Source of the DNA: a virus
Strand: one strand, 5' to 3'
IMG/VR virus record: IMGVR_UViG_3300042289_000474
Location: 1-36,809 of that record
Length of the DNA: 36,809 nucleotides
This document shows, piece by piece, positions 1,242 to 16,822 of the stretch. A program made the translations under genes and the position numbers. The number at the start of each line of letters is the position of its first letter. Position 1 is the stretch's first letter. The notes below the pieces were generated by a model. It searched no databases. It saw nothing but the letters and a program-made list of their open reading frames with translations, and had not been told where the DNA came from.

Positions 1242-1550
1242 ATGTACGGGTACTACGGAGCGAACTACGACCTCGGTGACTACGAGGGCGACGACATGGG
1301 CGAACTCGACGGCGTCATGGACATGCTGAAGAAGGAAGTCTTCGGCGTCCCCGCGTGGGCACTGGCCCTCGGCGGCGCGGCCCTCCTCGCCTTCACCAAG
1401 CCGGGCAAGCGTCTGCTCGGTGGCCTCGGGATCGGCGGCAAGGCCGCGAAGAAGAACCCCCGTCGTCGGAAGAGCCGTCGGAGCCGCAAGGCCCGCCGCA
1501 ACACCGTGGCGATGAAGATGAACCGCCGCCGTCGTCGTAGCCGCCGCTGA
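1242..1550 (+). CDS. Small membrane protein with acidic head and very basic tail
   Basis: A 102-residue protein. The start at 1242 is chosen because AGGAG (1232-1236) lies just upstream; in-frame translation further back merely shadows the previous gene. The first ~30 residues are Tyr/Gly/Asp rich and acidic. Residues ~36-52 form a short hydrophobic, Ala/Leu-rich possible TM helix. The rest is extremely basic: Lys-Lys-Asn-Pro followed by arginine clusters, ending in a poly-Arg tail. Such tails can bind nucleic acid or be trimmed by proteases. It sits between the basic RRNP protein and the 1578-residue giant and shares the Asn-Pro signature. A minor virion or membrane-apposed DNA-binding protein is possible but unproven. 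Confidence 0.7.
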   Translation: MYGYYGANYDLGDYEGDDMGELDGVMDMLKKEVFGVPAWALALGGAALLAFTKPGKRLLGGLGIGGKAAKKNPRRRKSRRSRKARRNTVAMKMNRRRRRSRR

Positions 1551-1580
1551 ACCATCAGCGGTAGCCCTCGACGGGCTTCC

Positions 1581-1632
1581 ACGGGGTTGTCCCCCCTCGC
1601 GCTTTCGTTAGCGTGGGGAGAGACAACCCCGT
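1581..1632 (+). terminator. Long stem-loop between genes, possible terminator or 5' UTR structure
   Basis: A perfect 11-base inverted repeat, ACGGGGTTGTC (1581-1591) and GACAACCCCGT (1622-1632), encloses a second pairing of CCCC with GGGG and CGC with GCG. Only a short T run (GTTT) follows, so it is not a classical rho-independent terminator. It ends about 20 bases before the ATG of the giant gene and just before its SD (GGAGG), so it could equally protect or regulate that mRNA. Confidence 0.5.
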
Positions 1633-1651
1633 GTCCGTTTGGAGGTAGCCG

Positions 1652-4600
1652 ATGCTCGCTGCCCTTCGCTCTGCCGTCGCCGCCGTTTCGTCCGAACTTG
1701 CGGAGAAGAACGCGGTCATCCGTGTCCTCGCGGAGCATGGGCATCGCCGCCCGCCCAGCGTCGTCCAGCACCGCGACGCCAGCGGCGTCACCCGCGTCTA
1801 CCTGTGGGACGACGCGGGCATCGCCCTCGTCACGGGGCCGTCGCTTGAGGGCACGGTCTACGAGGTTCACGCCGTACCCGCTGACGCGGACCCCACGGCG
1901 TTCGACGTGTTCATCCCGGCGGCGCGTGGCCGCTCGGCGTTCGCCGCTGGCCGCAAGGCCAAGGCACTGGCGAATCCCGCCCCGGCGCGTGCGCCGCTCG
2001 CGCAGGCCCCCCGTCGCGTCGGCGCGCACTCGCCCCCGCAGCCCCCCGTGCGTCAGCCCGCCGTCCTCACGCGGCACAACCCGCCCGACGCCTACGAGGT
2101 CAACCCCGGCCTCCCCGGCGGGAAGCAGACCCTCGGTGACATCGTCCCCTTCGCGGACATCGCCGTCGGCACCATCCTTTTCCGCATCGTGAACGGCAAC
2201 GAGGTTGGCATCGAGCAAGTCACGTCGAAGTCGATGGCTGGCCCCTACGCCAACATGAAGATCAAGAATCTTGCGAAGACGATGAAGATCGGCGGGGGCC
2301 GCGTGCTGATCGCGACGACTGCCGCGCCGACGCAGGGGATGCACGCTGCCGAAGACCTCACGGCGACGACCTTCTACGGGTCGAAGACGAAGCCGACGCA
2401 GGCGTGGGAACTGGCGCACAAGTACCTGCCCATGATCGGCATCGACCCCGCCGCCCAGCCGCTCCTCATGGCCTACGGGTCGGACGAGTTTCGCACGCTG
2501 CCGATGCCCAGCGGGGCCGTCGCGCCCGCTGCACCGTCGAGCGGCACGCCCATCCCTGCCTCGGCGGCGGCGCAGCCCGTCTACGTCGTGTTTGAGCCGG
2601 GCACGGGCATCCTCGTGTCGGGCGGGACGAAGCCCTACAAGGACGCCATCAAGGCGCAGGGCTTCAAGTGGTCGGGGCCGTCCGGCTACCTCACCTACCC
2701 TCCGAACGTGTGGTTCTACCCGCACTCCGACGTGGCGAAGAGCGTCGGCAGTTTCCTCGGCGGGAAGTCGGTGCTGGTCATCGCGGCGAACCTCGCGAGC
2801 GCGCTGAAGGCAGCGGGCGCGACCGTCCAGTTGTCGTCGGCTCTCAACACCGATGCCGTGGCCCCCGTCGCCGCACCCGCCGCAGCGTCGGGCGATCCGT
2901 CGCCTCCCCCGATGTCGCCGCTTCCGGCGGTGGGCATCCCCGTCCAGTTTTCGTCGGATCGCTTCCGTGCGCTGCCGCCGAACCCCGTGTGGGCCGAAGG
3001 TGGCGGCGTGGACGCCATCGCGAAGCGGTTGAAGTTGACCGGGGGCAAGCCCGGCGGCGGGTTGGCGGGCGGCGTCTACACCGATTCGCAGACGGGACTG
3101 ACGTACCTTGCGAAGTTTCCCCCGAACGCGCAGATGGTCGCGAGCGAAGTCCTCGCCGCCCACCTCTACCGTGCCCTCGGCGTCTTCGTGCCCGATATGC
3201 GCCCCGCCGTCGTGGACGGGAAGGCGACGATCCTCTCCCCGTGGATCGCGGGGCTGAAGCCCCTCGCCACGTCGGGGGCGACGTTCGCGGCGAACGTCCC
3301 CCTCATGGAGAAGAAGTGGCTGGCCGCATCGTTCCCCTCGGACGTGTGGCTCGCGGACTACGACGTGGTGGGCCTGTCGTGGGACAACCTGCTGAAGTTG
3401 CCCGACGGGCACTCCGTCCGCATCGACCCCGGCGCGTCGCTCATGTTCCGCGCAGGCGGGCAGTTGAAGTCGCCGCTCCCGACGGTGAACGCCGACGCCG
3501 AACTGGATTCGATGCTCTTCCAGCCCATCAACGACAAGACCCCCGTGGTCTTTGCGCTGGCGAAGGACGACCCCGCGCTCATGGTCCCGATGGCGACGGC
3601 CATCGCGGTCTACATGCAGCAGCCCTACATCGACGCTCTGGCAAACTGGACGGGCTACTCGCTGAAGGCGGGCATCCCCTTTGGCATGACCATCGGGGAC
3701 TACCTCTACAACCGGGCGCAGTCGGTGCTGGAAGCCGTGCTTGCCAAGGCGGGCACCACCGCCCCTGCCCCCGCCGCTGCCCCTGTCTCCACCCCGGCCC
3801 CTGCCCCGGCCCCCACTGTCGCCCCGCTGGCCGTTGCCGAAAGCGTCGCGAAGAAGGTCGCGGCTCTGCTCCCCGGCACGTCGTCGGGCGGCGTCGGGCC
3901 GTTCGTGTGGACGGTGATGAGCAGCGTCGGAACCTACGTCGAACTGGCGATAAAGTACGACTCGCTCGTCGCGACCATCTTCGCGAACGACGGCACCCCG
4001 AAGCAGCAGTTGTCCTACGACATCCCCTCGGGGTCGCTCACATCGTTCATCGTGTCGCGTGCCGCTGACATCGCGAACGCCTTCAAGCCCTACTTGGCGG
4101 GCGCGGCCCCCGCAGCGGCTTCGACGCCGACGCTTCCGGTGCCCACTGCATCGGCGGGCGCGGGCCTTGCCGACGTGTCCAGCATGACGGAGATCGACGC
4201 GCTCCCCGAAGGCTCCATCGTCACGGGGGCTGCGTCCCCCGGCGCGCTGCTCTACGTCCGCGACGCCTCGGGCCTGTGGCGCGAGTTGACGGACGACGGC
4301 GGCTTCATGCCGGGGCTGTTCTCCGATGACGTGTACGACACGCTCGGCGGCGAGGTTCTGCTGGTCTACGAGGGCAACGGCACGGGGCCGGAAGCCGACG
4401 ACGCGATCATGCTCTCGGCCTACTACTCGATGGCGCAGCAGATCCTCTCGGGCAAGAAGCCCGCGCCCGCTGCCGCCCCGGCCCCCGCCCCCGTCGCGGC
4501 CCCGCCTGCGGCTGCGGCTGCGCCGTCCGGTGACCCGCTCTCGTGGCCCGTGCTGGACGGCTTTGAGGCCGGGATGGGGCCGGACTTCACATGGGACGCC

Positions 4601-6388
4601 GTGGGCGGCGTCGCGGCTCTCGTGAAGCGGCTTGAACACGCACCGCTCGGCCCGAAACTGGGATCGTTCTACGGCGGGAAGATGGTCGATCCGCTGACGG
4701 GCGCGGCGTTCTACGTCAAGTTCTTCAAGAACGCCGAACACGCGGACACGGAAGCCCTCGCGTCGCACCTCTACCGGCTGCTCGGGATCAACGCTCCCGA
4801 TGCCCGCGTTGCGGGCGCGCTCTGGTTTGGGGCGAAGGGCAAGGGCTTTCAGCGCGCACTGCTCTCCCCGTGGGAGAGCGGCTACGAGCAGCGCGTCAAC
4901 GGCTCGTTCACCAGCGACGAGAAGGCCGTGCTGCGGTCGCAGTTCCCCGCCGACGTGTGGATGTCCAACTACGACGTGGTCGGGAAGGGTCCGGCCACCA
5001 AGTACGACAACCTGCTGGTGAACCTCGGGTCGCCCGTCGCCGCCGCGTCGCACTTCCTCCGCGTCGATCAAGGGGCCGCGCTCGACTACCGCTCGACGGG
5101 CAGCGCGAAGAAGTCCTCCTCGGAGTGGGATAGCGACGCCGCGAAGACGTGGGGTGGCTTCCTCTCGTCGCAGCACCCGACGATCTTCAAGGTCTTCGAC
5201 GGTGCGACCCCGACGAACGGGGCCGCGATGATCCAGCGCATCGGCAAACTGGTGGGCCACCCGCAGTTTGGGGCGGTCCTCGGCTACGCGAAGCGCGGCG
5301 ACTTGAGCGAGATGCTGAAGGCGCGTGCGGGCTGGCTCGCCGGGATGCTCTCGGCTGAAACGTCCACCGCTGCGCCCGCCGTGTCGATGCCCTCGGCTGG
5401 CCCGACGGCTCTTTACGTCGGCATGAAGGCGGCGGCGACGATGCTGAAGCCGCTGATCAAGCAGGGCAAGTGGTCGCTGCTGAAGAAGGACGACGACACG
5501 CTCTACCTCGCGGGCTTTGGCGACGGGAAGGTCAACAAGATCGACTCGATGGGCTGGAGCGGCGATGTCCTCCTCCTCCCGCCGGGCGGCTACACGGTGC
5601 TGGCAGTCGGCGGCGATCTCGGGAACACGGAACCGAAGGTCTTGCACGCGCAGTACAGTCCCCCAACCATTCCCGCCGCTGCGGCCACGCCTACGTTCAA
5701 GTTTGTCAGCCCAAACGCGGTGGAGGCACTGGCCGAACAGGTGCGGCAGACCGTCGCGTCGAAGGGCTTCGCCACGTCGAAGCCCCCGTCCGTCATCACG
5801 CACTTTGTCGTGACGCTCTACGAGGGCACGGAGGCCCATGCGTTCTCGGTCAAGTTTATCGGGCAGTTTGAGAAGGTGGTGGTCAAGTTGAACCTTGACG
5901 AGATCGGCCTCTTCTCTCCCGACAAGGCTGGGGTCGCAGACGCCATCGCCACCGCGATCCTCGGCGCGCTGCGGCTGAAGATGGCGAACTTTGGGCTGAT
6001 GAAGCAGCCCCCCGGCGCGGCCCCCGTCGCGTCCGCTGGCTCCGTCACGGTGGGGACGATCCTCACGACCGTCGAGCAGATCAAGGCTCTGCCCGTGGGC
6101 AGCGTGATCGCCTACGGGCACAACACTGGCCCGAACACGACGCCCTATGTCTCCCTCTACCGCTGCGTCGATTCCGACGAGTGGATGCTGACGACGTTCA
6201 GCGGCGAGTTGAAGACCGGAACCAACATAACGACCTCGGAGATGGCCCCCAGCACCGAACAGTGGGGGGTTGTCGTACTCCGTGTAGGCGGCGAGGGCGA
6301 TCTGCCCGAAGCGTTCTACGAACATTTGATCGACGTGACGGGCAAGTCGGCCAAGTCGATTCTCTCTTCCTTCCCCCTCGGAGCCTAG
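1652..6388 (+). CDS. Giant modular protein with two kinase-like domains
   Basis: A 1578-residue protein. GGAGGT precedes the ATG at 1652. It reads as globular modules separated by Ala/Pro linkers. Residues ~310-370 hold a small module with a Lys-Pro-Tyr-Lys-Asp...Gly-Phe-Lys-Trp motif. Residues ~446-640 and ~985-1180 are two copies of one domain. Copy 1 has Tyr-Leu-Ala-Lys488, Glu499 in a helix, then DVWLADYDVVG with Asp571, Asn579 and Arg-Ile-Asp592-Pro-Gly. Copy 2 has Tyr-Val-Lys1023, Glu1034, Asp1108, Asn1120 and Arg-Val-Asp1139-Gln-Gly. Lys, Glu, Asp...Asn and Asp-x-Gly in this order are what a HipA, actin-fragmin-kinase or PI3-kinase-like ATP site shows; the fold assignment is inference. 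LPxGS...W modules occur near residues 850 and 1479, and a related one near 170. Co-ejected polyvalent phage proteins have this kind of layout. The role is probably virion-borne or early host takeover. Confidence 0.85.
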   Translation: MLAALRSAVAAVSSELAEKNAVIRVLAEHGHRRPPSVVQHRDASGVTRVYLWDDAGIALVTGPSLEGTVYEVHAVPADADPTAFDVFIPAARGRSAFAAGRKAKALANPAPARAPLAQAPRRVGAHSPPQPPVRQPAVLTRHNPPDAYEVNPGLPGGKQTLGDIVPFADIAVGTILFRIVNGNEVGIEQVTSKSMAGPYANMKIKNLAKTMKIGGGRVLIATTAAPTQGMHAAEDLTATTFYGSKTKPTQAWELAHKYLPMIGIDPAAQPLLMAYGSDEFRTLPMPSGAVAPAAPSSGTPIPASAAAQPVYVVFEPGTGILVSGGTKPYKDAIKAQGFKWSGPSGYLTYPPNVWFYPHSDVAKSVGSFLGGKSVLVIAANLASALKAAGATVQLSSALNTDAVAPVAAPAAASGDPSPPPMSPLPAVGIPVQFSSDRFRALPPNPVWAEGGGVDAIAKRLKLTGGKPGGGLAGGVYTDSQTGLTYLAKFPPNAQMVASEVLAAHLYRALGVFVPDMRPAVVDGKATILSPWIAGLKPLATSGATFAANVPLMEKKWLAASFPSDVWLADYDVVGLSWDNLLKLPDGHSVRIDPGASLMFRAGGQLKSPLPTVNADAELDSMLFQPINDKTPVVFALAKDDPALMVPMATAIAVYMQQPYIDALANWTGYSLKAGIPFGMTIGDYLYNRAQSVLEAVLAKAGTTAPAPAAAPVSTPAPAPAPTVAPLAVAESVAKKVAALLPGTSSGGVGPFVWTVMSSVGTYVELAIKYDSLVATIFANDGTPKQQLSYDIPSGSLTSFIVSRAADIANAFKPYLAGAAPAAASTPTLPVPTASAGAGLADVSSMTEIDALPEGSIVTGAASPGALLYVRDASGLWRELTDDGGFMPGLFSDDVYDTLGGEVLLVYEGNGTGPEADDAIMLSAYYSMAQQILSGKKPAPAAAPAPAPVAAPPAAAAAPSGDPLSWPVLDGFEAGMGPDFTWDAVGGVAALVKRLEHAPLGPKLGSFYGGKMVDPLTGAAFYVKFFKNAEHADTEALASHLYRLLGINAPDARVAGALWFGAKGKGFQRALLSPWESGYEQRVNGSFTSDEKAVLRSQFPADVWMSNYDVVGKGPATKYDNLLVNLGSPVAAASHFLRVDQGAALDYRSTGSAKKSSSEWDSDAAKTWGGFLSSQHPTIFKVFDGATPTNGAAMIQRIGKLVGHPQFGAVLGYAKRGDLSEMLKARAGWLAGMLSAETSTAAPAVSMPSAGPTALYVGMKAAATMLKPLIKQGKWSLLKKDDDTLYLAGFGDGKVNKIDSMGWSGDVLLLPPGGYTVLAVGGDLGNTEPKVLHAQYSPPTIPAAAATPTFKFVSPNAVEALAEQVRQTVASKGFATSKPPSVITHFVVTLYEGTEAHAFSVKFIGQFEKVVVKLNLDEIGLFSPDKAGVADAIATAILGALRLKMANFGLMKQPPGAAPVASAGSVTVGTILTTVEQIKALPVGSVIAYGHNTGPNTTPYVSLYRCVDSDEWMLTTFSGELKTGTNITTSEMAPSTEQWGVVVLRVGGEGDLPEAFYEHLIDVTGKSAKSILSSFPLGA

Positions 6389-6390
6389 CC

Positions 6391-9300
6391 ATGCGTGCTT
6401 CCATGCTGCGCCCCACCCGCCCCGCCCGTCGCAACCCCTACAACGCCGCCGTCGCGCAAGCGTTGCACCAGTGGCTCACGTCGAACGGCCTGCTCGCTCT
6501 CGTCGCTGAAGGGGCTGCGGCCCCCGCGTCGTCCACGCCGCAACACCTGTCCGACGTGTCGCTGCTACCGCATGGAAACTACGGTGCGGGCAGCGGTGCG
6601 CTTCTAGTCGTCACCCTACCAGTAGAGGGGAAGTCGGCGTGGTTCCACTACGACACGAACGAGTGGCGCAAGGTCAACCCCGACGGCTCGATGTCGCCGC
6701 CCTTCTTGACCAACCTCGCGATGCAGATCGCCGTAGACGCGGCGTTCGCGAACGGCGGGAACGTCGTGAACTTCGGGGCCTTCTCCGGCATGGCGCATGT
6801 GCTGCAAGCCGCGCTCGCGCAGGCGGGCATGGGCGTCGTCGCCCCAGCCCCCGCTGCGCCCGCTGCGGCACTGGACGTAAAGACCCTCCCGCACGCGAAC
6901 TACGCGCCCAGCCCCGACAACATGGGCACGCTGCTGCTCATCACGCACCCCAGCGGTGCAACGGAAGCGTGGTATCACTACACCCTCGGGGATTGGTCGG
7001 GAGTAGCGGACAACGGGGGCTACTCGGGGGCCGTGCTGACAGAAGCCGCGATGCAGAGTGCCGTGGACAACGCGCTTGCGAGCGGCGGCACGGTGCAGAA
7101 CCTCGGCCCCGTGTTGTGGAGCAGTTCGTTTCTTACGAAGGCCATCACGAAGGCGATGTCGTCAACGCCTGCTGCGGCCCCCGCCCCCGCCGCCGCGCCC
7201 GCGCCTGCTCCCGCCGCACCCGCCGGGGCCGCGTCCTCGGGGCCGTGGGGCACCGTGCTTCCGAAGACGATGGATTGGTCGGTGATCCCGAACAACTCCG
7301 TGGTTGTCCTGTTCAGCGTAGACGGCGACAAGACGGTGTGGTTCCACTTCTCCAAGAACGATTGGTCGGAGTTGACGGGTGGAACGTACCACTACGTCAC
7401 GTTGAAAGAGGAGAACTTCGCGACCAAGGCGTCGGGGTCTGCCGCTGCCGTGCTTCTCCCCGGCACCTTCAACTGGGACGCCAAGCATGAGGTGGCCCTT
7501 GCGGCCACGAAGGTGCCCCCGCTGGAGAGCCTGTCGGTGTCCGCTCCCCCGGCACCCGCCGCCCCGGCTGCGGAGCCTGTGGGCCTCGACGCCAGCACCC
7601 TCGGCGCGCTGCAAAACCTGCACGACTACATCAAGGGCGACGACGCCAAGATCGGCATGGCAGGCGCGATCCTAAAGCGCATCGTGCCGAAGCCCAACGA
7701 CCTCTTCGCGTCGGCCTACCCCCAAGACTTTGATGGGTACGGCACAAAAATGGGCCGTGCGAAGTTCCTTTCGAAACTGGTCAATCTCGGCATCGCCGTC
7801 CCCTACACGACACTGGCGAGCGGAGAGAAGGCCGTCAAGGCGAGCCAGACGGGCATCCTCGTGGCCGATGCGTGGATGAACAAGGGCTACTCCGACCCCG
7901 CGATGCTCGGGAAGAAGCCGAAGGCGAAGAAGGCTCCCTCGGGAGTCGCGGCTGCGGTTGCCGAAGTCACGACCCCGGTCGCCACGGGTCCGAAGGGCAA
8001 GCAGATCACGTCCATCGCGGACAACCTCGGCGTCCTCGGGCCGCTGATCGTGGAAGCCGCCGCGAAGGTGTCCGGCGTGACCGCAGAAGCGGGCGCGGGC
8101 GGCATCACCATGATGACGAACGATCTGAAGTCCTCGGTGACGCTGGCGAGCGCGACCGTGAACACGGTCACGATGGCGTACTACGAAGACTCGTTCTTCA
8201 AGTCGGAGAAGACGACGACGTTCGCCGTGCCAGACATGGCAGGGATGCTCGCGAGCAGCATCGCGCAGGCGATGGTCTACTTCCTCGTCTACTCGCACGA
8301 GAGCGGCGGGAAGGTCGCCGTCCAGCCCCCGCCCGGTCTGCCCGACCCGCAGGTTGTGGACGATGTCGCGCTCGTCACGGGCGCGCAACTCACGACGGGG
8401 GCGCAGATGTCGGCCCTGCCGCCCGGCTCCGTCACCATCGGCGGGGAGGTGCGCTACTTCGCCTACCCGAACTGGGACACCTACTTCAAGCCCGTGGCTG
8501 ACCCGAAGGTCGCCGCGCAGTCGGGCATCGTGTTCCCGGCTCCGAAGCAGCCGGGGTGGCCCTCCGTGCAGATCGCGCCGACGCTCACGGTCTACTCGGA
8601 ACTGCCCGTCGGCACGCTCCTCCGCACCGACTTCTCGGGCGGCTCGGTCTACGCCGCCCGCGTGGACAGCACCGGCTACCAGAAGGTCGATTCTGGCTCG
8701 GGCACGGTCAACACGTCGTCGTCCAAGCGCGCCCCCTCGCAACTCGTCACCGACGCCGCGAAGAACAAGGCGACGCCGTACATCATCTACTTGGGCAAGG
8801 GGAAGGTCGAGGACGCCCACACCTACAAGGAGTGGATCGAGGGCAAGCGCATCGACAACGCGGAGATCAAGGCGCAGCAGGCGTCCGCACTGGTCGAGAT
8901 GCTGGCCGAAGCCCTCGGCATCGACCCGCGAGTCGCGGCCCTGTTCACGACGAAGGCGTTGCAGGCGATGCTCGCGCAGACGGGCATCCCCTACATGGGC
9001 AGCACCCTTGTCCCGCCCATTACGACGACGGCGCAGTCGCCCCTGCTGAAGAAGAACCCCGCCAGCCTGCTCGGGGGCTTCCGCTCCAACCCCGAACGCT
9101 ACCGCGACACTGTGCGCGCCGTGCTGCGGAACCCGCGCCCGACGCTCCGCGACCTACAGGACGCCGAACTGCTGGAAGCAGCGGGCCTGCCCCTTCACGA
9201 TGCCGTGCCCCGTCGCCGCAACCCCGATGGCGGGCTGGCCCCCGCGACGGACGCGGAGAGCGGCATCATCAAGGCCGTGGCCGATGCGCTGAAGGCCGCG

Positions 9301-10500
9301 CTCGGCAGCGGGCCGCAGCCCAGCGGCGGCACGAAGGTCGGATCGTCCATCGACGCCAAGTTGGGCAGCATGTATCAGTCGGGGGGTACGCCGCGCCCCG
9401 AAACCTCGGGGAGCCTCGCCCAGTGGCTTCGCTACCTCGTGGCGGCGCGGGCGGCGGGCCTCTGGAAAAACTACATCGACCCCGGTGAGCGCGAGGTCAC
9501 ACGCGGACTCTCTTTCGGGTCCACGCAGGCCAACGACCCGTCGCAGTCCGTCCGCGTCAACGCCGACGGCCTCACGCAGATCGAGGTGATGAAGGCGGCG
9601 GGGTTGATCTCCACGCCCCTCAAGCCCTACGACGCGATGGCGGCGTGGTTGAACAAGCAGGCGTCGGGCAGCGGGTGGTTCCGCGAGGACGTGGGCCAGC
9701 CGTGGCAGGCGTCGAACAACCTCACGCCCCCTCCGTCCTACCCCGGCAAGTTGTCGGCCTCGGGGAGCAGCGGCGACAGCGACAGCATCCAGCACTGGAA
9801 CACCTACCAGCGTGCGGAGGGCGGCGGCGCGTGGAAGGGCAAGTTGCCCTATCCGGCGTGGGCTGCGGAGCCGTGGGCGAACGTCGAGGGCTTCGGCGTG
9901 GACTACCACGACCCGACGTACTCCAAGTTCACGGCATCGGAGTGGTCGGCCCCGCTCTTCGGCTACGCGGGGTTGTCCTACTTCCTTCTGCGGGCGAACA
10001 CCCGCGATCCCCGCTTCGTGCTTCTGCCGGGATCGAAGTTGAGCAGCGGCCCGATGACGCAGTTCAAGAGCGAGGGAGCCATCGTCTTCGTCACGGTGGA
10101 CGAGAAGCCGCTGAAGGCCGAAGTGGTCAGCGTCGGGCACGGGGACGGGCATCTCACGAAGGAGCAGTTGTCCGCGTGGATTCGGGCGCGGCCCGCCTAC
10201 CCCACGGGGCCGAAGCCCGTCGGCCCCGCGCAGGGCATCGTGCTTCACCGCAACCCGGCCCCGGCTCCGACGCGGCTCACGATGCGCGAAGTCCACGCCT
10301 TCCTGTTCCCCCGCGCCAAGTGGGGGCCGGGAGCGGTGCGAAACTGGCTCGCGCAGCGTGGCATGGAAGGTCTGCACGTCGCGGCGGCGGGTGGAAACTG
10401 GCGCGTCGAGGTCTACGGCTCTGCGGGCTTCTACCCCGGCACGATCCGTCAACGCTCCGTCGGGGACGGCGTCGTCGCCCTCGTTGGGCGTCCTCTCTAG
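6391..10500 (+). CDS. Giant modular protein with repeated ~100-residue domains
   Basis: About 1369 residues, starting at the ATG two bases after the previous TAG; the frame is open upstream, but that part only shadows the preceding gene. Arg-Arg-Asn-Pro occurs at residues 13-16. Residues ~54-147, 163-257 and 286-372 are three copies of a module marked by Leu-Pro-His-x-Asn-Tyr or a similar start and Trp-Phe/Tyr-His-Tyr/Phe...Trp, linked by Ala/Pro runs. The middle contains LPxGS/T modules like those of the preceding giant. Residues ~887-946 hold four Asn-Pro motifs with basic neighbours. The last ~70 residues (Trp-Gly-Pro...Trp-Leu-x-x-Arg-Gly, then Phe-Tyr-Pro-Gly-Thr-Ile-Arg) match the C-terminal module of the SNF2-like helicase at 10956-12686. 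No enzyme motif was recognised. A virion or co-injected partner of the preceding gene is inferred. Confidence 0.85.
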   Translation: MRASMLRPTRPARRNPYNAAVAQALHQWLTSNGLLALVAEGAAAPASSTPQHLSDVSLLPHGNYGAGSGALLVVTLPVEGKSAWFHYDTNEWRKVNPDGSMSPPFLTNLAMQIAVDAAFANGGNVVNFGAFSGMAHVLQAALAQAGMGVVAPAPAAPAAALDVKTLPHANYAPSPDNMGTLLLITHPSGATEAWYHYTLGDWSGVADNGGYSGAVLTEAAMQSAVDNALASGGTVQNLGPVLWSSSFLTKAITKAMSSTPAAAPAPAAAPAPAPAAPAGAASSGPWGTVLPKTMDWSVIPNNSVVVLFSVDGDKTVWFHFSKNDWSELTGGTYHYVTLKEENFATKASGSAAAVLLPGTFNWDAKHEVALAATKVPPLESLSVSAPPAPAAPAAEPVGLDASTLGALQNLHDYIKGDDAKIGMAGAILKRIVPKPNDLFASAYPQDFDGYGTKMGRAKFLSKLVNLGIAVPYTTLASGEKAVKASQTGILVADAWMNKGYSDPAMLGKKPKAKKAPSGVAAAVAEVTTPVATGPKGKQITSIADNLGVLGPLIVEAAAKVSGVTAEAGAGGITMMTNDLKSSVTLASATVNTVTMAYYEDSFFKSEKTTTFAVPDMAGMLASSIAQAMVYFLVYSHESGGKVAVQPPPGLPDPQVVDDVALVTGAQLTTGAQMSALPPGSVTIGGEVRYFAYPNWDTYFKPVADPKVAAQSGIVFPAPKQPGWPSVQIAPTLTVYSELPVGTLLRTDFSGGSVYAARVDSTGYQKVDSGSGTVNTSSSKRAPSQLVTDAAKNKATPYIIYLGKGKVEDAHTYKEWIEGKRIDNAEIKAQQASALVEMLAEALGIDPRVAALFTTKALQAMLAQTGIPYMGSTLVPPITTTAQSPLLKKNPASLLGGFRSNPERYRDTVRAVLRNPRPTLRDLQDAELLEAAGLPLHDAVPRRRNPDGGLAPATDAESGIIKAVADALKAALGSGPQPSGGTKVGSSIDAKLGSMYQSGGTPRPETSGSLAQWLRYLVAARAAGLWKNYIDPGEREVTRGLSFGSTQANDPSQSVRVNADGLTQIEVMKAAGLISTPLKPYDAMAAWLNKQASGSGWFREDVGQPWQASNNLTPPPSYPGKLSASGSSGDSDSIQHWNTYQRAEGGGAWKGKLPYPAWAAEPWANVEGFGVDYHDPTYSKFTASEWSAPLFGYAGLSYFLLRANTRDPRFVLLPGSKLSSGPMTQFKSEGAIVFVTVDEKPLKAEVVSVGHGDGHLTKEQLSAWIRARPAYPTGPKPVGPAQGIVLHRNPAPAPTRLTMREVHAFLFPRAKWGPGAVRNWLAQRGMEGLHVAAAGGNWRVEVYGSAGFYPGTIRQRSVGDGVVALVGRPL

Positions 10501-10509
10501 GAGATCCAC

Positions 10510-10935
10510 ATGAAGATGCGTCGCAACGGCTCGCTGGTCGCAGCCGCCGTACTCGTACAAGAGCGCAAGGTTCGCAACGGAACCCGCGCACAGGCTCTCG
10601 TTCTGAAGCGGGGCGTCACGGCCCCGTGGCTCCCGAACTACTGGAACCTTCCCGGTGGCGGCGTCGATCCCGGCGAAACCGCGATGCAGGGCGCAGCGCG
10701 TGAGTGCGAGGAGGAGATCAGCCTCGTTCCGCAGGGCTTGCGCCCGCTGGCGACCTACCATGACCCCGAAGGCTGGACGCTGGAAACCTTCGTCACCGAC
10801 CGCTGGAAGGGCGAGCCTGTCGTGACGTGGGAGAGCGACGGCTACGCATGGGTGAGCCTTGACGACCTTCCGCACATGCGCTTCGTCCCCGGCGTCCGCG
10901 AGGTGCTGGAACAGGTGTTCCGCGCATTGAAGTGA
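10510..10935 (+). CDS. Nudix hydrolase
   Basis: A 141-residue protein with AGGAGA overlapping the previous stop and an ATG at 10510. The Nudix box spans residues ~50-72: Gly50, Glu56, Arg64-Glu65 and Glu68-Glu69, the residues that bind the metal and catalyse hydrolysis of a nucleoside diphosphate linked to another group. The usual Gly near the end of the box is Ser71. Length and the upstream strand (Pro-Asn-Tyr-Trp-Asn-Leu-Pro-Gly-Gly) are typical of the family. Substrate cannot be read from the sequence; phage Nudix enzymes act on (d)NTPs, dinucleoside polyphosphates, NAD or ADP-ribose, or RNA caps. It sits between a giant modular protein and a helicase. Confidence 0.92.
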   Translation: MKMRRNGSLVAAAVLVQERKVRNGTRAQALVLKRGVTAPWLPNYWNLPGGGVDPGETAMQGAARECEEEISLVPQGLRPLATYHDPEGWTLETFVTDRWKGEPVVTWESDGYAWVSLDDLPHMRFVPGVREVLEQVFRALK

Positions 10936-10955: not shown

Positions 10956-12686
10956 ATGATCCCTGCCCGCCGTACCGCGCCTGCTCATCGCCCCCGTCCT
11001 CGCGCTCGGGTCGCACCGAAGGCTCCCCCGCCGGAACTGCGCCCCTTCCAGCGTGAGGGCGTGGACTTCCTCGCGACGAGCAACTGGCGGGTGCTGCTTG
11101 CGGACGCCCCCGGCTGCGGCAAGACGCCGCAAGTCCTCGTGGCGATGCGCGAGAACGCGAAGACGCTCTGCCCGATGCTCGTCGTCTGCCCGTCGTCCGT
11201 GGCGTGGAACTGGCGGCGGGAGGCGACACGCTGGGTGCCCGGCGTGAAGGTGCATGTCGTGGAAGGGTTCAGCGGGCCGCTGCCTCGCGGCGTCCATCTC
11301 ACGATCTGCCCGTGGGACGTGCTGGCGGCGCGGCTCCCCGACCTCATGGCGCGGGGCTTCAAGTGTGTCGTCGCGGACGAAGCCCACTACGCGAAGGCGG
11401 GCGTCGAAACGCAGCGCGGGCGAGCGTTGCAGTCGATCTGCGCGACGGCTCCGCACGTCCTTCTTCTCTCGGGGACGCCGTTGGTGAACAACGCCGACGA
11501 ACTGAACACCCTGCGCGGGATGTTCGGCTCGGAACCCCCGACGATGCTGCGGCGGCTGTTGGAGGACGTGGCTCCCGACATCCCCCCGAAGCGGCGCGTC
11601 ACGCTCAAGACCACCATCCCCGACGACATCCGCGTGGAGTACGACAAGGCCAAGGAAGAGTTTGGGGAGTGGCTGGACGACTATCTTCCCCGCGTGCTGG
11701 ACGACGCGGCGGCTGCGGAGAGCGCGGCGTCGAAGGCACTGGCAGCGGAGCCGTTGGCGAAGGTGGCCTACCTGCGGCGCATCCTCGGGCGCGGGAAGGT
11801 GCCGGGAACGGCGGCGTGGACGGCGAGCATGGTCAAGCGGGGCGAACCCGTCGTCGTGTTCGGCCAGTTTTCCGACGTGCTGGATCTGCTCGGGCAGGCC
11901 CTCTCACGACTCGCCATCCCCTTCGTGCGCCTCGACGGGACGGCGAGCCGCCAGCAGCGGCAGATCGCCATCGACGCCTTCCAAGCCGGAAAGGTGCCCG
12001 TTTTCATCGGCAGCATGGCCGCGAAGGAGGGCATCACGCTCACGAAGGCGCGGCACCTCCTGTTCATGGAGCGGTGGTACACCCCCGCCGCAGAGGAGCA
12101 GGCCGAAGACCGCATCCGGCGCATCGGGCAGACGCGCCCGACGACCATGTGGTATCTGCACGCCGACGACACCATTGACGAGCGCATCAGCGAGATCGTG
12201 GACGCGAAGCGCGGCATCGTCGCCGCGAACATCGGGACGGCGACCATCGAACACCTCGACGCCCCGACGGTCATGGATGCGTGGGAGCGGATGAAGACGC
12301 TGAAGGACGGCGTGCCCACCGTCGCGAGCAACCCCGACGCCTCGCTCCCGCTTCCGAAACTTCCCGACCAGCGCATCGTCCACGCCGTCGTCTTCGACGC
12401 GACCCGCTGGCCCATCCCCGACGTGCAGCGTGCGCTGCGGGCTGCGGGCTACCGGCAGCGCAAACTGGACCGGAAGGGGAACACCGTCCGCATTGAGATC
12501 CGCAGCAAGGGCGCGTTCCTCCCCGGCACCCTGCGGACGGCCCGCCTCGCCATTGACTTCGGCATGGTCGCCGGGAAGCCCGCCCCGACGCAGCGCGCCC
12601 GCTCCGCTGCCTACCGCGCCATGAAGCGGCAGCAGCAGGCGCAGCGGCGCATGGCATCGTCGCCGCTTCTGCGCCGCGCACGCTGA
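10956..12686 (+). CDS. SNF2-like DEAD/H superfamily 2 helicase
   Basis: A 576-residue protein. Motif I is Pro-Gly-Cys-Gly-Lys56-Thr. Motif II is Asp141-Glu-Ala-His. Motif III is Leu-Ser-Gly-Thr-Pro. The C-terminal RecA-like lobe carries a Gln-x-x-Asp-Arg-Ile-Arg-Arg-Ile-Gly-Gln motif VI (residues ~382-392), diagnostic for SNF2-type helicases. These act as ATP-driven double-strand DNA translocases in phage replication, transcription or recombination. Residues ~478-545 form an extra module shared with the C-terminus of the preceding giant protein, after a linker with Ser-Asn-Pro. The ATG at 10956 follows the Nudix stop by 20 bases with no clear SD (GGGTGGGGG only). Confidence 0.93.
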   Translation: MIPARRTAPAHRPRPRARVAPKAPPPELRPFQREGVDFLATSNWRVLLADAPGCGKTPQVLVAMRENAKTLCPMLVVCPSSVAWNWRREATRWVPGVKVHVVEGFSGPLPRGVHLTICPWDVLAARLPDLMARGFKCVVADEAHYAKAGVETQRGRALQSICATAPHVLLLSGTPLVNNADELNTLRGMFGSEPPTMLRRLLEDVAPDIPPKRRVTLKTTIPDDIRVEYDKAKEEFGEWLDDYLPRVLDDAAAAESAASKALAAEPLAKVAYLRRILGRGKVPGTAAWTASMVKRGEPVVVFGQFSDVLDLLGQALSRLAIPFVRLDGTASRQQRQIAIDAFQAGKVPVFIGSMAAKEGITLTKARHLLFMERWYTPAAEEQAEDRIRRIGQTRPTTMWYLHADDTIDERISEIVDAKRGIVAANIGTATIEHLDAPTVMDAWERMKTLKDGVPTVASNPDASLPLPKLPDQRIVHAVVFDATRWPIPDVQRALRAAGYRQRKLDRKGNTVRIEIRSKGAFLPGTLRTARLAIDFGMVAGKPAPTQRARSAAYRAMKRQQQAQRRMASSPLLRRAR

Positions 12687-14330: not shown

Positions 14331-14782
14331 TGGCGTACAACACCTTCCCCTCCGTTACCCGTGCGGGTGTGCCCAGTGTCGGCAACGACAGCACGCAAGG
14401 GTTCGTCGTCGGCTCCCAATGGACCGACACCTCGGCGGCTCCGCGCAAAATCTACCTTTGCACCGACGCCTCCGCAGGCGCGGCGACGTGGGTCAACGCG
14501 GGCGGCGTCACGTCGCACCCCGCGCTCACGACCCTCGGGTGGTCTTCTTCGGGGCACACGGGGACGCAAAACAGCGTGGCCTGCTTCGACGGAGCGGGGG
14601 CGGCTCTGAATGTGCAGGCGACTGCGGAGGGCAGCGTGCTGACCTTCACGGGGGGTGTGCTGACGTTCGCCGTGTTCGCCGCGACGGTTGCCTACGTTTC
14701 CGAACGCTCGACGGAAACGTACTACGTTGACACTCTCTCCGATGCGGCTGCGGACTTCGTCCTCGCCGGGAGCATGATCTGA
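14330..14782 (+). CDS. Fibre-cluster protein, hypothetical
   Basis: 150 residues from the ATG at 14330, which overlaps the previous stop; an in-frame ATG at 14318 is less likely because it lies within the upstream gene. The N-terminal half (Gly-x-x-Trp-x-Asp...Ile-Tyr-x-Cys-Thr-Asp-Ala-Ser...Trp-Val-Asn) resembles short Gly/Ser/Trp modules seen in phage fibre and carbohydrate-binding regions. The C-terminal half is Val/Thr-rich. The TGA overlaps the next ATG (ATGA-type coupling). A component or accessory of the receptor-binding apparatus is inferred from position. Confidence 0.75.
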   Translation: MAYNTFPSVTRAGVPSVGNDSTQGFVVGSQWTDTSAAPRKIYLCTDASAGAATWVNAGGVTSHPALTTLGWSSSGHTGTQNSVACFDGAGAALNVQATAEGSVLTFTGGVLTFAVFAATVAYVSERSTETYYVDTLSDAAADFVLAGSMI

Positions 14783-15786
14783 TGGCACTCTCTCCGCTCA
14801 ACTGGCGTCTGCTGCCTCCCTACACGCTGAAGGTGGGCTACACGATCTTCGACTACATCGACGCCGTCTACCAGATGGGCATTTCCACGGAGTACGCCGA
14901 TGGATCGCCCCGAACGCCGGGCACTGGCTCGGCGTGGACGTGGACGCGGGATCAGACGCTCGTTCCCGGCAGCACGACGGCGGCTATCGGCATCCCGCCG
15001 ATCAACTCGCTGGGCATGGCCTACATCGTGGCGGGGGACACCGCTTCACGCAACCCCGTGATGAACACCGACCAAGCGTACACCATCACGCAGAACGCCC
15101 CTATCCTCGGCATGAACAAGAACAGCGGCGTTTACAACTCATGGGTGGCGGCAAACCCCATGACGAGCGGGCAGTTTTACGGGTTCGTCCGCGCTCCCGC
15201 GCTCGGAACCTTCGCAGGTGCGGCGTTCCCCCAACTGCTGATGATGATGGAGTGTGAGGAAGGCTTTATGGTCGCGTGGAACCGGACGGACGCTGCGGCA
15301 CAGTCTTCCTTCGGGGGCGGTGCGCTCATCGACCCGCTCTCGGCAGCGGCTCTCAACGCAGAGAGCGATGGGCGGCTCTACTCTTACGTCACCTCGGGTG
15401 CGTCGAACTTCACCGTTGCCACCTTCCTCGATGGGGGCACAAACGGGAACTGGTTGGTCGGAAGCACAGGCTCGAACGCTCAACACTTCTTTACCGCCAA
15501 CATCGGCGCGGTCGCGACAAGCCGCAACACCGCCAAGATCGGGGCTTACTCGGGCATCACCAACTCTTTCGTCGCGCCGAACGGCGAGATTCCGCAGATC
15601 CCGCTCTCGGCCTACTTCACGCCCAGCGGGCAGTACGCAGGACAACTTCGGGGCATGAACGTCACCAAAAACTACCTCACGGGCGCAGAGGTTGCCGTGG
15701 GCAACGCGGGCGTGCGGACGGTGAAGGGCTACGCGCTTGGCTACTCTACGAACACGCAGACCCCCGCGCTCCTGTTGACGTACTAG
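14782..15786 (+). CDS. Fibre-cluster structural protein, paralogue A
   Basis: A 334-residue protein that begins Met-Ala-Leu-Ser-Pro-Leu-Asn-Trp-Arg and is clearly related to the following gene. Shared blocks are the Trp-Arg...Thr-Leu opening, Asn-Pro-Met/Phe-Thr-Ser/Thr-Gly, Leu-Asn-Ala-Glu-Ser-Asp-Gly-Arg and Pro-Asn-Gly-Glu-Ile/Phe-Pro. It is rich in aromatic and small residues, with no TM segment. I do not recognise the family. Its location between fibre genes, and duplication with divergence, suggest a surface-exposed or receptor-related virion protein. ATG overlaps the preceding TGA. Confidence 0.8.
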   Translation: MALSPLNWRLLPPYTLKVGYTIFDYIDAVYQMGISTEYADGSPRTPGTGSAWTWTRDQTLVPGSTTAAIGIPPINSLGMAYIVAGDTASRNPVMNTDQAYTITQNAPILGMNKNSGVYNSWVAANPMTSGQFYGFVRAPALGTFAGAAFPQLLMMMECEEGFMVAWNRTDAAAQSSFGGGALIDPLSAAALNAESDGRLYSYVTSGASNFTVATFLDGGTNGNWLVGSTGSNAQHFFTANIGAVATSRNTAKIGAYSGITNSFVAPNGEIPQIPLSAYFTPSGQYAGQLRGMNVTKNYLTGAEVAVGNAGVRTVKGYALGYSTNTQTPALLLTY

Positions 15787-15796
15787 GAGGCGAAGC

Positions 15797-16822
15797 ATGG
15801 CTCTCCCCACGCTGACATGGCGGGCGTTCACTCCGGTCACGCTCTCCGCGAACACGACGGTGGCGATCCTCGACGCGATCTACACCAACGGCACGGCGAC
15901 GGTGAACTACGCGGACGGCACGCCACGCCCCGTGCCGGGAACTGCGGGCAGCACCTCGTGGACATGGAACCGCGAAAGCCCTGCGGGCGTCACGGTGTCG
16001 GCTTACGGCTCTCCCCCCCAGCCCATCGCTCCCGACGCGATGATCCCCACGACCTACATCGTCGCAGGCGCGAGCGCGCTACCCGGCACCGGGCCGACAA
16101 TGGCGACGATCAACGGAACGACGCCCGACACCAACGCCATCAACCGACTGAACCTCGGCATGGTGAAGAACCCCGGCGCGTACACCAACTGGAACGCGGC
16201 CAACCCCTTCACGACCGGCAACTTCTCGGGCTACGCGACGGTGTCGCCCGCGACGACGGCGATCACCTACGTCACGCTCTATATGTGGGAGTGCCAAGAG
16301 GCGTGGATCGCGATGCTGTTCAACGCGGGCGGCACGCAGGGCTACGTCATGGGCGGCGGTGCGTTCGTCAACCCGCTTTCGACGGCGTCGCTCAACGCGG
16401 AGAGCGACGGTCGCTGCTACTCGATCACGACGACGGGGGCGACCTCGTTCGTCGGGACTACATGGATCAGCAACGTCAGCGGAAGCGTTGGCCCGTGGCG
16501 CGGGACAACCGCCGCTAGTGGCTCGCGGTGGTATCAGTTCGCTCCCGGCACTGGAACGCTGCGTAGCCTCAACCGCGTAGCAAGCGGGACGGCAGCGGCT
16601 CTCGCCTCGACCTCGACTACGCCTAACGGCGAGTTTCCGTTCATCCCCATGTTCGACATGATCGACACGACGAGCAGCCAATACATGGGCGAAATGCGGC
16701 AGATCGGGGTCACACGCGCTGCGCGAACAGGGCAGCGGTGGGCGAACGGGGGCACTATCGTCGCCTACATCCTTTCGGCGCAGACCGGAACCGACCGCGA
16801 AGCCGCAGCGATGCTCTACTAG
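15797..16822 (+). CDS. Fibre-cluster structural protein, paralogue B
   Basis: A 341-residue protein with a strong SD (AGGAGG, overlapping the previous stop) and ATG at 15797. It is the second copy of the tandem pair. The block around Pro-Leu-Ser-Thr-Ala-Ser-Leu-Asn-Ala-Glu-Ser-Asp-Gly-Arg and the Pro-Asn-Gly-Glu block are conserved with paralogue A, while intervening parts have diverged and carry small insertions. Overall length is nearly equal. No enzymatic motif is visible. Related but unequal copies side by side are usual for host-range proteins, but function is inferred from context only. Confidence 0.8.
   Translation: MALPTLTWRAFTPVTLSANTTVAILDAIYTNGTATVNYADGTPRPVPGTAGSTSWTWNRESPAGVTVSAYGSPPQPIAPDAMIPTTYIVAGASALPGTGPTMATINGTTPDTNAINRLNLGMVKNPGAYTNWNAANPFTTGNFSGYATVSPATTAITYVTLYMWECQEAWIAMLFNAGGTQGYVMGGGAFVNPLSTASLNAESDGRCYSITTTGATSFVGTTWISNVSGSVGPWRGTTAASGSRWYQFAPGTGTLRSLNRVASGTAAALASTSTTPNGEFPFIPMFDMIDTTSSQYMGEMRQIGVTRAARTGQRWANGGTIVAYILSAQTGTDREAAAMLY

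What the first reader, a model, noticed from the sequence alone, without database searches (positions are those of the whole stretch)
2980..5260. Two tandem kinase-like domains in one giant phage protein
Both copies keep Lys in a strand, Glu in the following helix, a DVW-x-x-x-Tyr-Asp-Val-Val-Gly motif, Asp-Asn, and an Asp-x-Gly. That order matches HipA/actin-fragmin/PI3-kinase-like ATP sites. If active, a virion-borne double kinase could phosphorylate host or phage proteins early in infection. Copies differ in loops and in Asp-Pro-Gly versus Asp-Gln-Gly.
Basis: inference. Interest (0 to 1): 0.75.

Follow-up and report, generated by a model that had tools for sequence, protein, structure and literature searches.

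The report
Twin kinase domains in giant phage protein
A very large protein of an uncultured phage carries two copies of an enzyme domain that is predicted with high confidence to have a kinase fold (closest solved relative: the bacterial kinase CtkA, then PI4-kinase and HipA), and relatives elsewhere are built into phage head proteins, so the phage may use it to rewire the host cell, although activity and delivery are not shown for this phage.

Summary
One 1578-aa protein (window 1652-6388, +) has two homologous domains, aa 436-708 and 962-1268 (34% identical, E=5e-27). Both keep Lys, Glu, D-V-W-x-x-x-Y-D-V-V-G, Asp-Asn and Asp-x-Gly. AlphaFold models are confident (pLDDT 95.9 and 89.9). Best structural matches are CtkA (Z 15.8 and 14.4), PI4-kinase II-alpha, CotH or Fam20C, actin-fragmin kinase and HipA/HipT, so the kinase-fold call is well supported. 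The domain is a widespread, poorly named phage family: 469 confirmed stretches in IMG/VR and 58 in bacterial genomes, usually one copy per protein. In a sample of 37 proteins 12 also have the Mu-F head domain and 13 an ADP-ribosyltransferase; one relative (Yersinia phage fHe-Yen8-01) is recorded as particle-associated. The tandem pair is an old internal duplication shared with two syntenic contigs; all six copies keep the catalytic set. Not shown: kinase activity, substrate, or presence in this phage's virion. No Mu-F, portal, terminase or ART was found on the window or its two relatives. A HipA-family kinase between portal and capsid genes was published for 'Gratiaviridae', so this is a new variant of a known kind.

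The parts
1652..6388 (+). Giant protein gene, 1578 aa, with two kinase-fold domains separated by proline/alanine-rich linkers and small domains
   Evidence: ORF; GC3 0.89; homologues in L013 and L014
2957..3775 (+). Kinase-fold domain 1 (aa 436-708)
   Evidence: AlphaFold pLDDT 95.9, pTM 0.93; best VIA match CtkA Z 15.8 over 222 residues, rmsd 3.6; family HMM hit 248 bits
4535..5455 (+). Kinase-fold domain 2 (aa 962-1268)
   Evidence: AlphaFold pLDDT 89.9, pTM 0.86; best VIA match CtkA Z 14.4 over 215 residues, rmsd 3.5; family HMM hit 170 bits
3113..3115 (+). d1 Lys488, strand Lys (ATP site, predicted)
   Evidence: Lys in 114 of 114 family members, not part of the search patterns
3146..3148 (+). 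d1 Glu499, helix Glu
   Evidence: Glu in 113 of 114
3341..3376 (+). d1 catalytic-loop motif D564-VWLADY-D571-VVGL; Asp569 replaces the usual Asn
3383..3388 (+). d1 Asp578-Asn579
   Evidence: Asn in 114 of 114
3425..3433 (+). d1 Asp592-Pro-Gly594 (metal-binding Asp, predicted)
4718..4720 (+). d2 Lys1023
4751..4753 (+). d2 Glu1034
4952..4984 (+). d2 catalytic-loop motif D1101-VWMSNY-D1108-VVG
5006..5011 (+). d2 Asp1119-Asn1120
5066..5074 (+). d2 Asp1139-Gln-Gly1141
6181..10500 (+). Adjacent second giant gene (1439 aa as listed; true start probably downstream of 6181), repeated small domains; one part shares a weak match with the C-terminal part of the kinase protein
   Evidence: syntenic in L013 and L014
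10510..10935 (+). NUDIX hydrolase gene two genes downstream; NUDIX genes also follow (or are fused to) several single-kinase relatives
   Evidence: PHROG 1198 E=2.5e-18

Best explanation
The gene encodes a large phage effector protein with two tandem ATP-dependent kinase domains of the CtkA/HipA/PI4KII/actin-fragmin-kinase fold group, made by an internal duplication before the three known phages with the pair split. Each copy has its own predicted ATP and metal site: strand Lys, helix Glu, catalytic Asp in D-V-W-x-x-x-Y-D, Asn, then Asp-x-Gly. Most likely both phosphorylate proteins on Ser/Thr, and the protein is made late, packaged and injected, as inferred for the Mu-F-fused and ADP-ribosyltransferase-fused relatives, so that it modifies host proteins at the start of infection. 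Shown here: homology of the copies, predicted fold, conservation of the catalytic set. Inferred: activity, protein substrate, packaging and timing. The two copies have kept different loops and D-P-G versus D-Q-G in all three phages, which suggests different substrates or regulation.
For: Fold: confident models of both copies and top matches to kinases of one structural group. A profile alignment places CtkA's K-F-P, S-E and F-V-A-D-T-L-L-G-N-F-D segments on the family's strand Lys, helix Glu and D-A-W-L-A-N-W-D motif, though at a non-significant E-value. Conservation: 111 of 114 members keep K, E, D, D, N and D; the phages found by plain tblastn, without motif patterns, keep them too. All six copies in the three double-kinase phages keep them, and each copy is 61-66% identical to its counterparts, so neither is decaying. 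Effector/virion link: of 37 sampled relatives 12 have Mu-F, 13 ADPrib_exo_Tox and 8 WGR in the same protein; Mu-F hits lie in an open frame of the kinase protein's own length; a relative lies between portal and capsid maturation protease genes in phage DSL-LC01 and between minor head and capsid genes in a plasmid-borne prophage; the fHe-Yen8-01 relative is annotated 'phage particle associated protein'. Matches among predicted viral structures include a phage portal protein and ADP-ribosyltransferases.
Against: No activity data. The Gly-rich loop of both copies departs from the family's G-S-N (G-G-L and G-S-F), and d1 has Asp for the usual Asn two residues before the catalytic Asp. No Mu-F, ART, TerL or portal was found on the window or on the two syntenic contigs, so packaging cannot be shown. 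Fold alone does not prove protein kinase chemistry: members of this fold group phosphorylate proteins or lipids.
Confidence: 0.55

Rival explanations
1. Active kinase made late or during lysogeny that acts inside the cell that made it (for example superinfection exclusion or cell-envelope modification), not injected from the virion.
For: This is what was proposed for the HipA-family kinase encoded between portal and capsid genes of 'Gratiaviridae' phages (PMC8008677). The window carries an integrase, so a temperate life is possible.
Against: Fusions of the same domain to Mu-F and ADP-ribosyltransferase, and a particle-associated relative, point to packaging.
Confidence: 0.2
2. One copy is active and the other is a pseudokinase that binds ATP or a partner and regulates or recruits (d1 is the suspect).
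For: d1 has Asp at the Asn position of the N-x-D loop, and Gly-rich loop changes. In another tandem protein (L117) the second copy has lost the catalytic Asp and the Asp of Asp-x-Gly. Active plus pseudokinase pairs are known in eukaryotes (established knowledge, e.g. JAK kinases).
Against: All six copies in three phages keep all six predicted catalytic residues, and both copies are about equally conserved.
Confidence: 0.25
3. The fold is used for another reaction or substrate: a lipid, sugar, nucleotide or cell-wall precursor kinase, or AMP transfer.
For: The same fold group contains PI4-kinase II-alpha (Z 13.5); NUDIX genes recur next to the family.
Against: The nearest structure, CtkA, is a Ser/Thr protein kinase, and HipA, HipT, Fam20C, CotH and actin-fragmin kinase are protein kinases (established knowledge; matches).
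Confidence: 0.12
4. Chance motif resemblance in a structural or adhesin-like repeat protein, no kinase fold.
For: Pfam HipA_C hit alone is below threshold (E=0.24).
Against: Models, fold matches and family conservation.
Confidence: 0.02

Closest known systems
CtkA (Helicobacter pylori Ser/Thr kinase; PDB 3akj, 3akk, 3akl)
   Same: Best structural match of both copies: Z 15.8 over 222 residues, rmsd 3.6 (d1) and 14.4 over 215, rmsd 3.5 (d2); strand Lys, helix Glu and L-G-N-F-D loop fall in the same order.
   Different: Only 12-18% identity and no significant sequence match (E 2.8). CtkA is a single, small stand-alone protein; here two copies sit in a 1578-aa phage protein.
HipA / HipT toxin kinases (Pfam HipA_C PF07804, HipA_2 PF20613)
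   Same: Same fold (Z 9.7-11.2); profile match over the Lys-Glu region to seven HipA_C proteins, E 9e-5 but only 44 columns.
   Different: Below Pfam's cut-off (11.4 against 30.5 bits); Asp and Asn of the loop are eight residues apart here, five in the HipA sequences at hand (T-D-G-H-A-K-N); no HipB-like partner next to it.
HipA-family kinase of 'Gratiaviridae' gut phages (PMC8008677)
   Same: Phage-encoded HipA-related kinase, located between portal and capsid genes, as some relatives of this family are.
   Different: Single kinase as described; the authors proposed a superinfection role; whether it belongs to this exact family could not be tested because the supplement is not held.
Kinase domains of phage polyvalent proteins (Iyer et al. 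2017, PMC5512222)
   Same: Kinase in very large multidomain phage proteins thought to be injected.
   Different: That group has lost the C-terminal subdomain and has a His...Asp with an insert; here C-terminal helices are present and conserved and there is no conserved His.
PI4-kinase II-alpha, actin-fragmin kinase, CotH, Fam20C
   Same: Same atypical-kinase fold group (Z 11-13.5).
   Different: Eukaryotic or spore-coat proteins, 8-17% identity, no sequence-level match.

Membership tests
Protein-kinase-like fold, CtkA/HipA/PI4KII group | Two-lobed fold with strand Lys, helix Glu, catalytic Asp loop with Asn, and Asp-x-Gly | tested here: met
   Models and fold matches; residues present in both copies and 111 of 114 members
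Protein-kinase-like fold, CtkA/HipA/PI4KII group | ATP binding and phosphotransfer | not testable with these tools
HipA_C (Pfam PF07804) | Score over the curated cut-off of 30.5 bits | tested here: not met
   11.4 bits, E=0.24 for the window protein; best relative in the sample E=0.00023
HipA toxin-antitoxin toxin | HipB-like helix-turn-helix partner gene next to it | tested here: not met
   Neighbouring genes 491-1207 and 6181-10500 have no HTH match in Pfam up to E=1
Phage polyvalent protein | Several unlike enzyme domains in one polypeptide | tested here: inconclusive
   Only the two kinase domains are recognised in the window protein; relatives combine kinase with ART, NUDIX, WGR and Mu-F
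Phage polyvalent protein | Encoded among virion genes and packaged | tested here: inconclusive
   Met for some relatives; no recognisable head, portal or terminase gene on the window, L013 or L014 contigs
Polyvalent-protein kinase clade of Iyer et al. 2017 | Loss of C-terminal subdomain; His and Asp separated by an insert | tested here: not met
   C-terminal helices present with Arg688 kept in 112 of 113 rows; no conserved His
'Gratiaviridae' HipA-family kinase | Sequence relationship to those five proteins | not tested
   Sequences are in supplementary files that are not held

The most novel reading that the evidence does not exclude
A virion-injected twin kinase whose two copies have diverged to different targets: d1 with an unusual D-x-D catalytic loop and d2 with the family's usual N-x-D loop, giving the phage two phosphorylation activities from one delivered polypeptide.
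Probability: 0.25. Interest if true: 0.7.

Novelty: new variant of a known kind. Interest (0 to 1): 0.5.

Why it matters
Well-characterised phage protein kinases are few; the gut-phage paper counts only two, those of T7-like phages and of 933W (PMC8008677). This family is large (hundreds of contigs), joined to head proteins and ADP-ribosyltransferases, and practically unnamed in public annotation, so it points to a second kind of enzyme besides T4 Alt-type ARTs that phages may deliver with their DNA. The twin-domain form gives a simple test for division of labour inside one delivered protein.

Tried and rejected
Plain-protein scan of viral contigs with domain 1 found nothing; the alignment-based scan worked. 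PDB sequence search with one domain gave only unrelated weak hits. Membership of Pfam HipA_C was rejected on score. Searches for Mu-F, TerL, portal and ART on the window and its two syntenic contigs were empty; the PF06381 portal search rang nowhere in its controls and says nothing. A family tally over 81 mostly unannotated genes of those contigs found endolysins, peptidases, primases, one 'minor head protein' and one 'tape measure' match, but no capsid, portal or terminase among the 25 of 34 families shown. The idea that Asp569 is unique to the d1 copies was weakened on reflection: the scan pattern demanded Asn at that position for most loci, so only the motif-free set (1 of 10 rows has Asp) is unbiased. 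Likewise conservation of the D-A-W-L-x-N-W-D and R-x-D-x-G Asps among scan-found members is partly by construction; Lys, Glu and Asn579 are not. An antisense 1681-aa ORF (1280-6325) was set aside: composition and homology support the + strand. Pseudomonas syringae rows were left out of the fold alignments as a precaution. Literature searches for this exact family found no description in the held library.

Full report
What is there. The window is a 36.8-kb virus record, possibly a fragment. The gene at 1652-6388 (+) encodes 1578 aa. Two regions, aa 436-708 and 962-1268, are homologous (34% identity over 221 columns, E=5e-27; independently E=4.8e-24). Codon composition (GC3 0.89) and third-position-rich divergence from a relative (0.38 against 0.23-0.30 at positions 1 and 2 in d1; 0.38 against 0.24 in d2) show a real coding gene.

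Family. Domain 1 finds eight phages by tblastn at 33-38% identity and five plasmid records. The phage and prophage proteins are very long (1177-3289 aa). Of four checked, three end in an ADP-ribosyltransferase above Pfam's cut-off (the fourth scores below it), one with a NUDIX domain as well. An alignment-based scan gives 469 confirmed relatives among viral contigs and 58 in bacterial genomes. In a sample of 37 full-length proteins, 12 have a Mu-F head domain, 13 match the ADPrib_exo_Tox model, 8 the ART model and 8 the WGR model. All eight Mu-F hits found at E<=0.001 in 41 phage records lie in an open frame of exactly the kinase protein's length. In phage DSL-LC01 the gene lies between portal and capsid maturation protease genes.

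Fold. AlphaFold2 with 114 and 108 rows gives pLDDT 95.9, pTM 0.93 for d1 and 89.9, 0.86 for d2. Foldseek's best PDB matches for d1 are CtkA and actin-fragmin kinase. VIA-align gives CtkA Z 15.8, PI4KII-alpha 13.5, CotH 13.2, actin-fragmin kinase 12.0 and HipT 11.1 for d1, and CtkA 14.4, PI4KII-alpha 13.2, Fam20C 12.6, actin-fragmin kinase 11.4 and HipA 11.2 for d2. Nearly all leading matches are kinases; LepB (Z 11.8 with d1) is labelled only as an effector fragment. By sequence the link is weak: Pfam HipA_C E=0.24; profile against seven HipA_C proteins E 9e-5 over 44 columns. So it is built like this fold group, but by sequence it is its own family.

Are both copies likely active? The predicted set is K488/K1023, E499/E1034, D564/D1101, D571/D1108, N579/N1120, D592/D1139. 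Across the alignment 111 of 114 rows keep all six. Part of this is circular: loci were found with patterns around the D-x-W-L and R-x-D-x-G motifs. Lys (114/114), Glu (113/114) and Asn579 (114/114) lie outside the patterns, and the motif-free phage set keeps everything. Both window copies depart from the Gly-rich G-S-N loop, and d1 has D-Y-D for N-Y-D. In another tandem protein, L117, the second copy has lost two catalytic residues, so loss does happen; it has not happened here. I put about 0.75 on at least one copy, and 0.6 on both, being enzymatically active (inference).

Origin of the pair. Contigs L013 and L014 share gene order around the giant protein, and largely from it to the DNA polymerase, and also have two kinase domains. 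In a maximum-likelihood tree the three d1 and three d2 form two clades that are sisters (100/97), nested in the family, which indicates one duplication before these phages split; the program warns that long branches meet there. The D-P-G/D-Q-G difference is fixed in all three.

Context. The contig also encodes an integrase, a DNA methyltransferase, a DNA polymerase, a Sak4-like annealing protein and an exonuclease on the minus strand, and a second giant gene, a NUDIX hydrolase, an SNF2-type helicase and possible tail-fibre genes on the plus strand. Searches for Mu-F, terminase, portal and ART on the window and both relatives were empty, and a tally over 81 other genes of the relatives gave endolysins but no capsid, portal or terminase in the families shown. 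Virion location is therefore argued from relatives only.

What is known. Iyer et al. 2017 described polyvalent proteins and a kinase clade in them, with features that do not fit here. A HipA-family kinase located between portal and capsid genes was reported in 'Gratiaviridae' phages in 2021, with a superinfection role proposed. Among predicted viral structures, matches of the d1 model include proteins already named 'Phosphatidylinositol 3-/4-kinase, catalytic domain containing protein', 'ADP ribosyltransferase' and 'Phage portal protein'. I found no paper in the held library on this family as such. The tandem form with two complete catalytic sets is the new part.

Verdict. Observation confirmed; interpretation partly supported. 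Kinase fold: about 0.97. Activity of at least one copy: about 0.75. Packaged and injected in this phage: about 0.5. New variant of a known kind; interest 0.5.

Noticed in passing
window 6181-10500 (+): Second giant gene next to the kinase gene has repeats of a roughly 80-aa W-F/Y-H-Y/F...W domain (aa 125-215, 232-325, about 365-410), and its C-terminal piece is weakly similar (27%, E 4e-4) to the end of the SNF2-type helicase gene at 10956-12686.
   Followed up: partly
window 14782-15786 and 15797-16822 (+): Two adjacent genes are paralogues (36% identity over 351 aa); both have counterparts on L151 and L154, near possible tail-fibre genes.
   Followed up: no
window 10510-10935; L004 10148-10891; L007 7747-8502; L006 6558-10955: NUDIX hydrolase genes recur just downstream of, or fused to, members of this kinase family; in relatives this may go with the ADP-ribosyltransferase, but the window has no recognised ART.
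   Followed up: partly
L105, L108, L112, L116, L120, L126 and others: Cellular proteins of about 700-900 aa with one such kinase domain in the Pseudomonas syringae group and actinobacteria; no Mu-F fusion was found in those proteins, so they may be a separate cellular use of the domain.
   Followed up: partly
L117 4350-7070: Another tandem pair, in an unnamed bacterial MAG; the second copy has lost the catalytic Asp and the Asp of Asp-x-Gly, as in a pseudokinase.
   Followed up: no
L019, L066, L067, L083, L084: Two neighbouring separate genes each carry one kinase domain (one of about 500-530 aa, one of about 1200-1600 aa), a split version of the twin arrangement.
   Followed up: no
window 1-36809 with the contigs of L013 and L014 (58.6 and 73.0 kb): An unclassified phage-like group with integrase, DNA polymerase and endolysins but no recognised terminase, portal or capsid gene on the three contigs.
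   Followed up: partly
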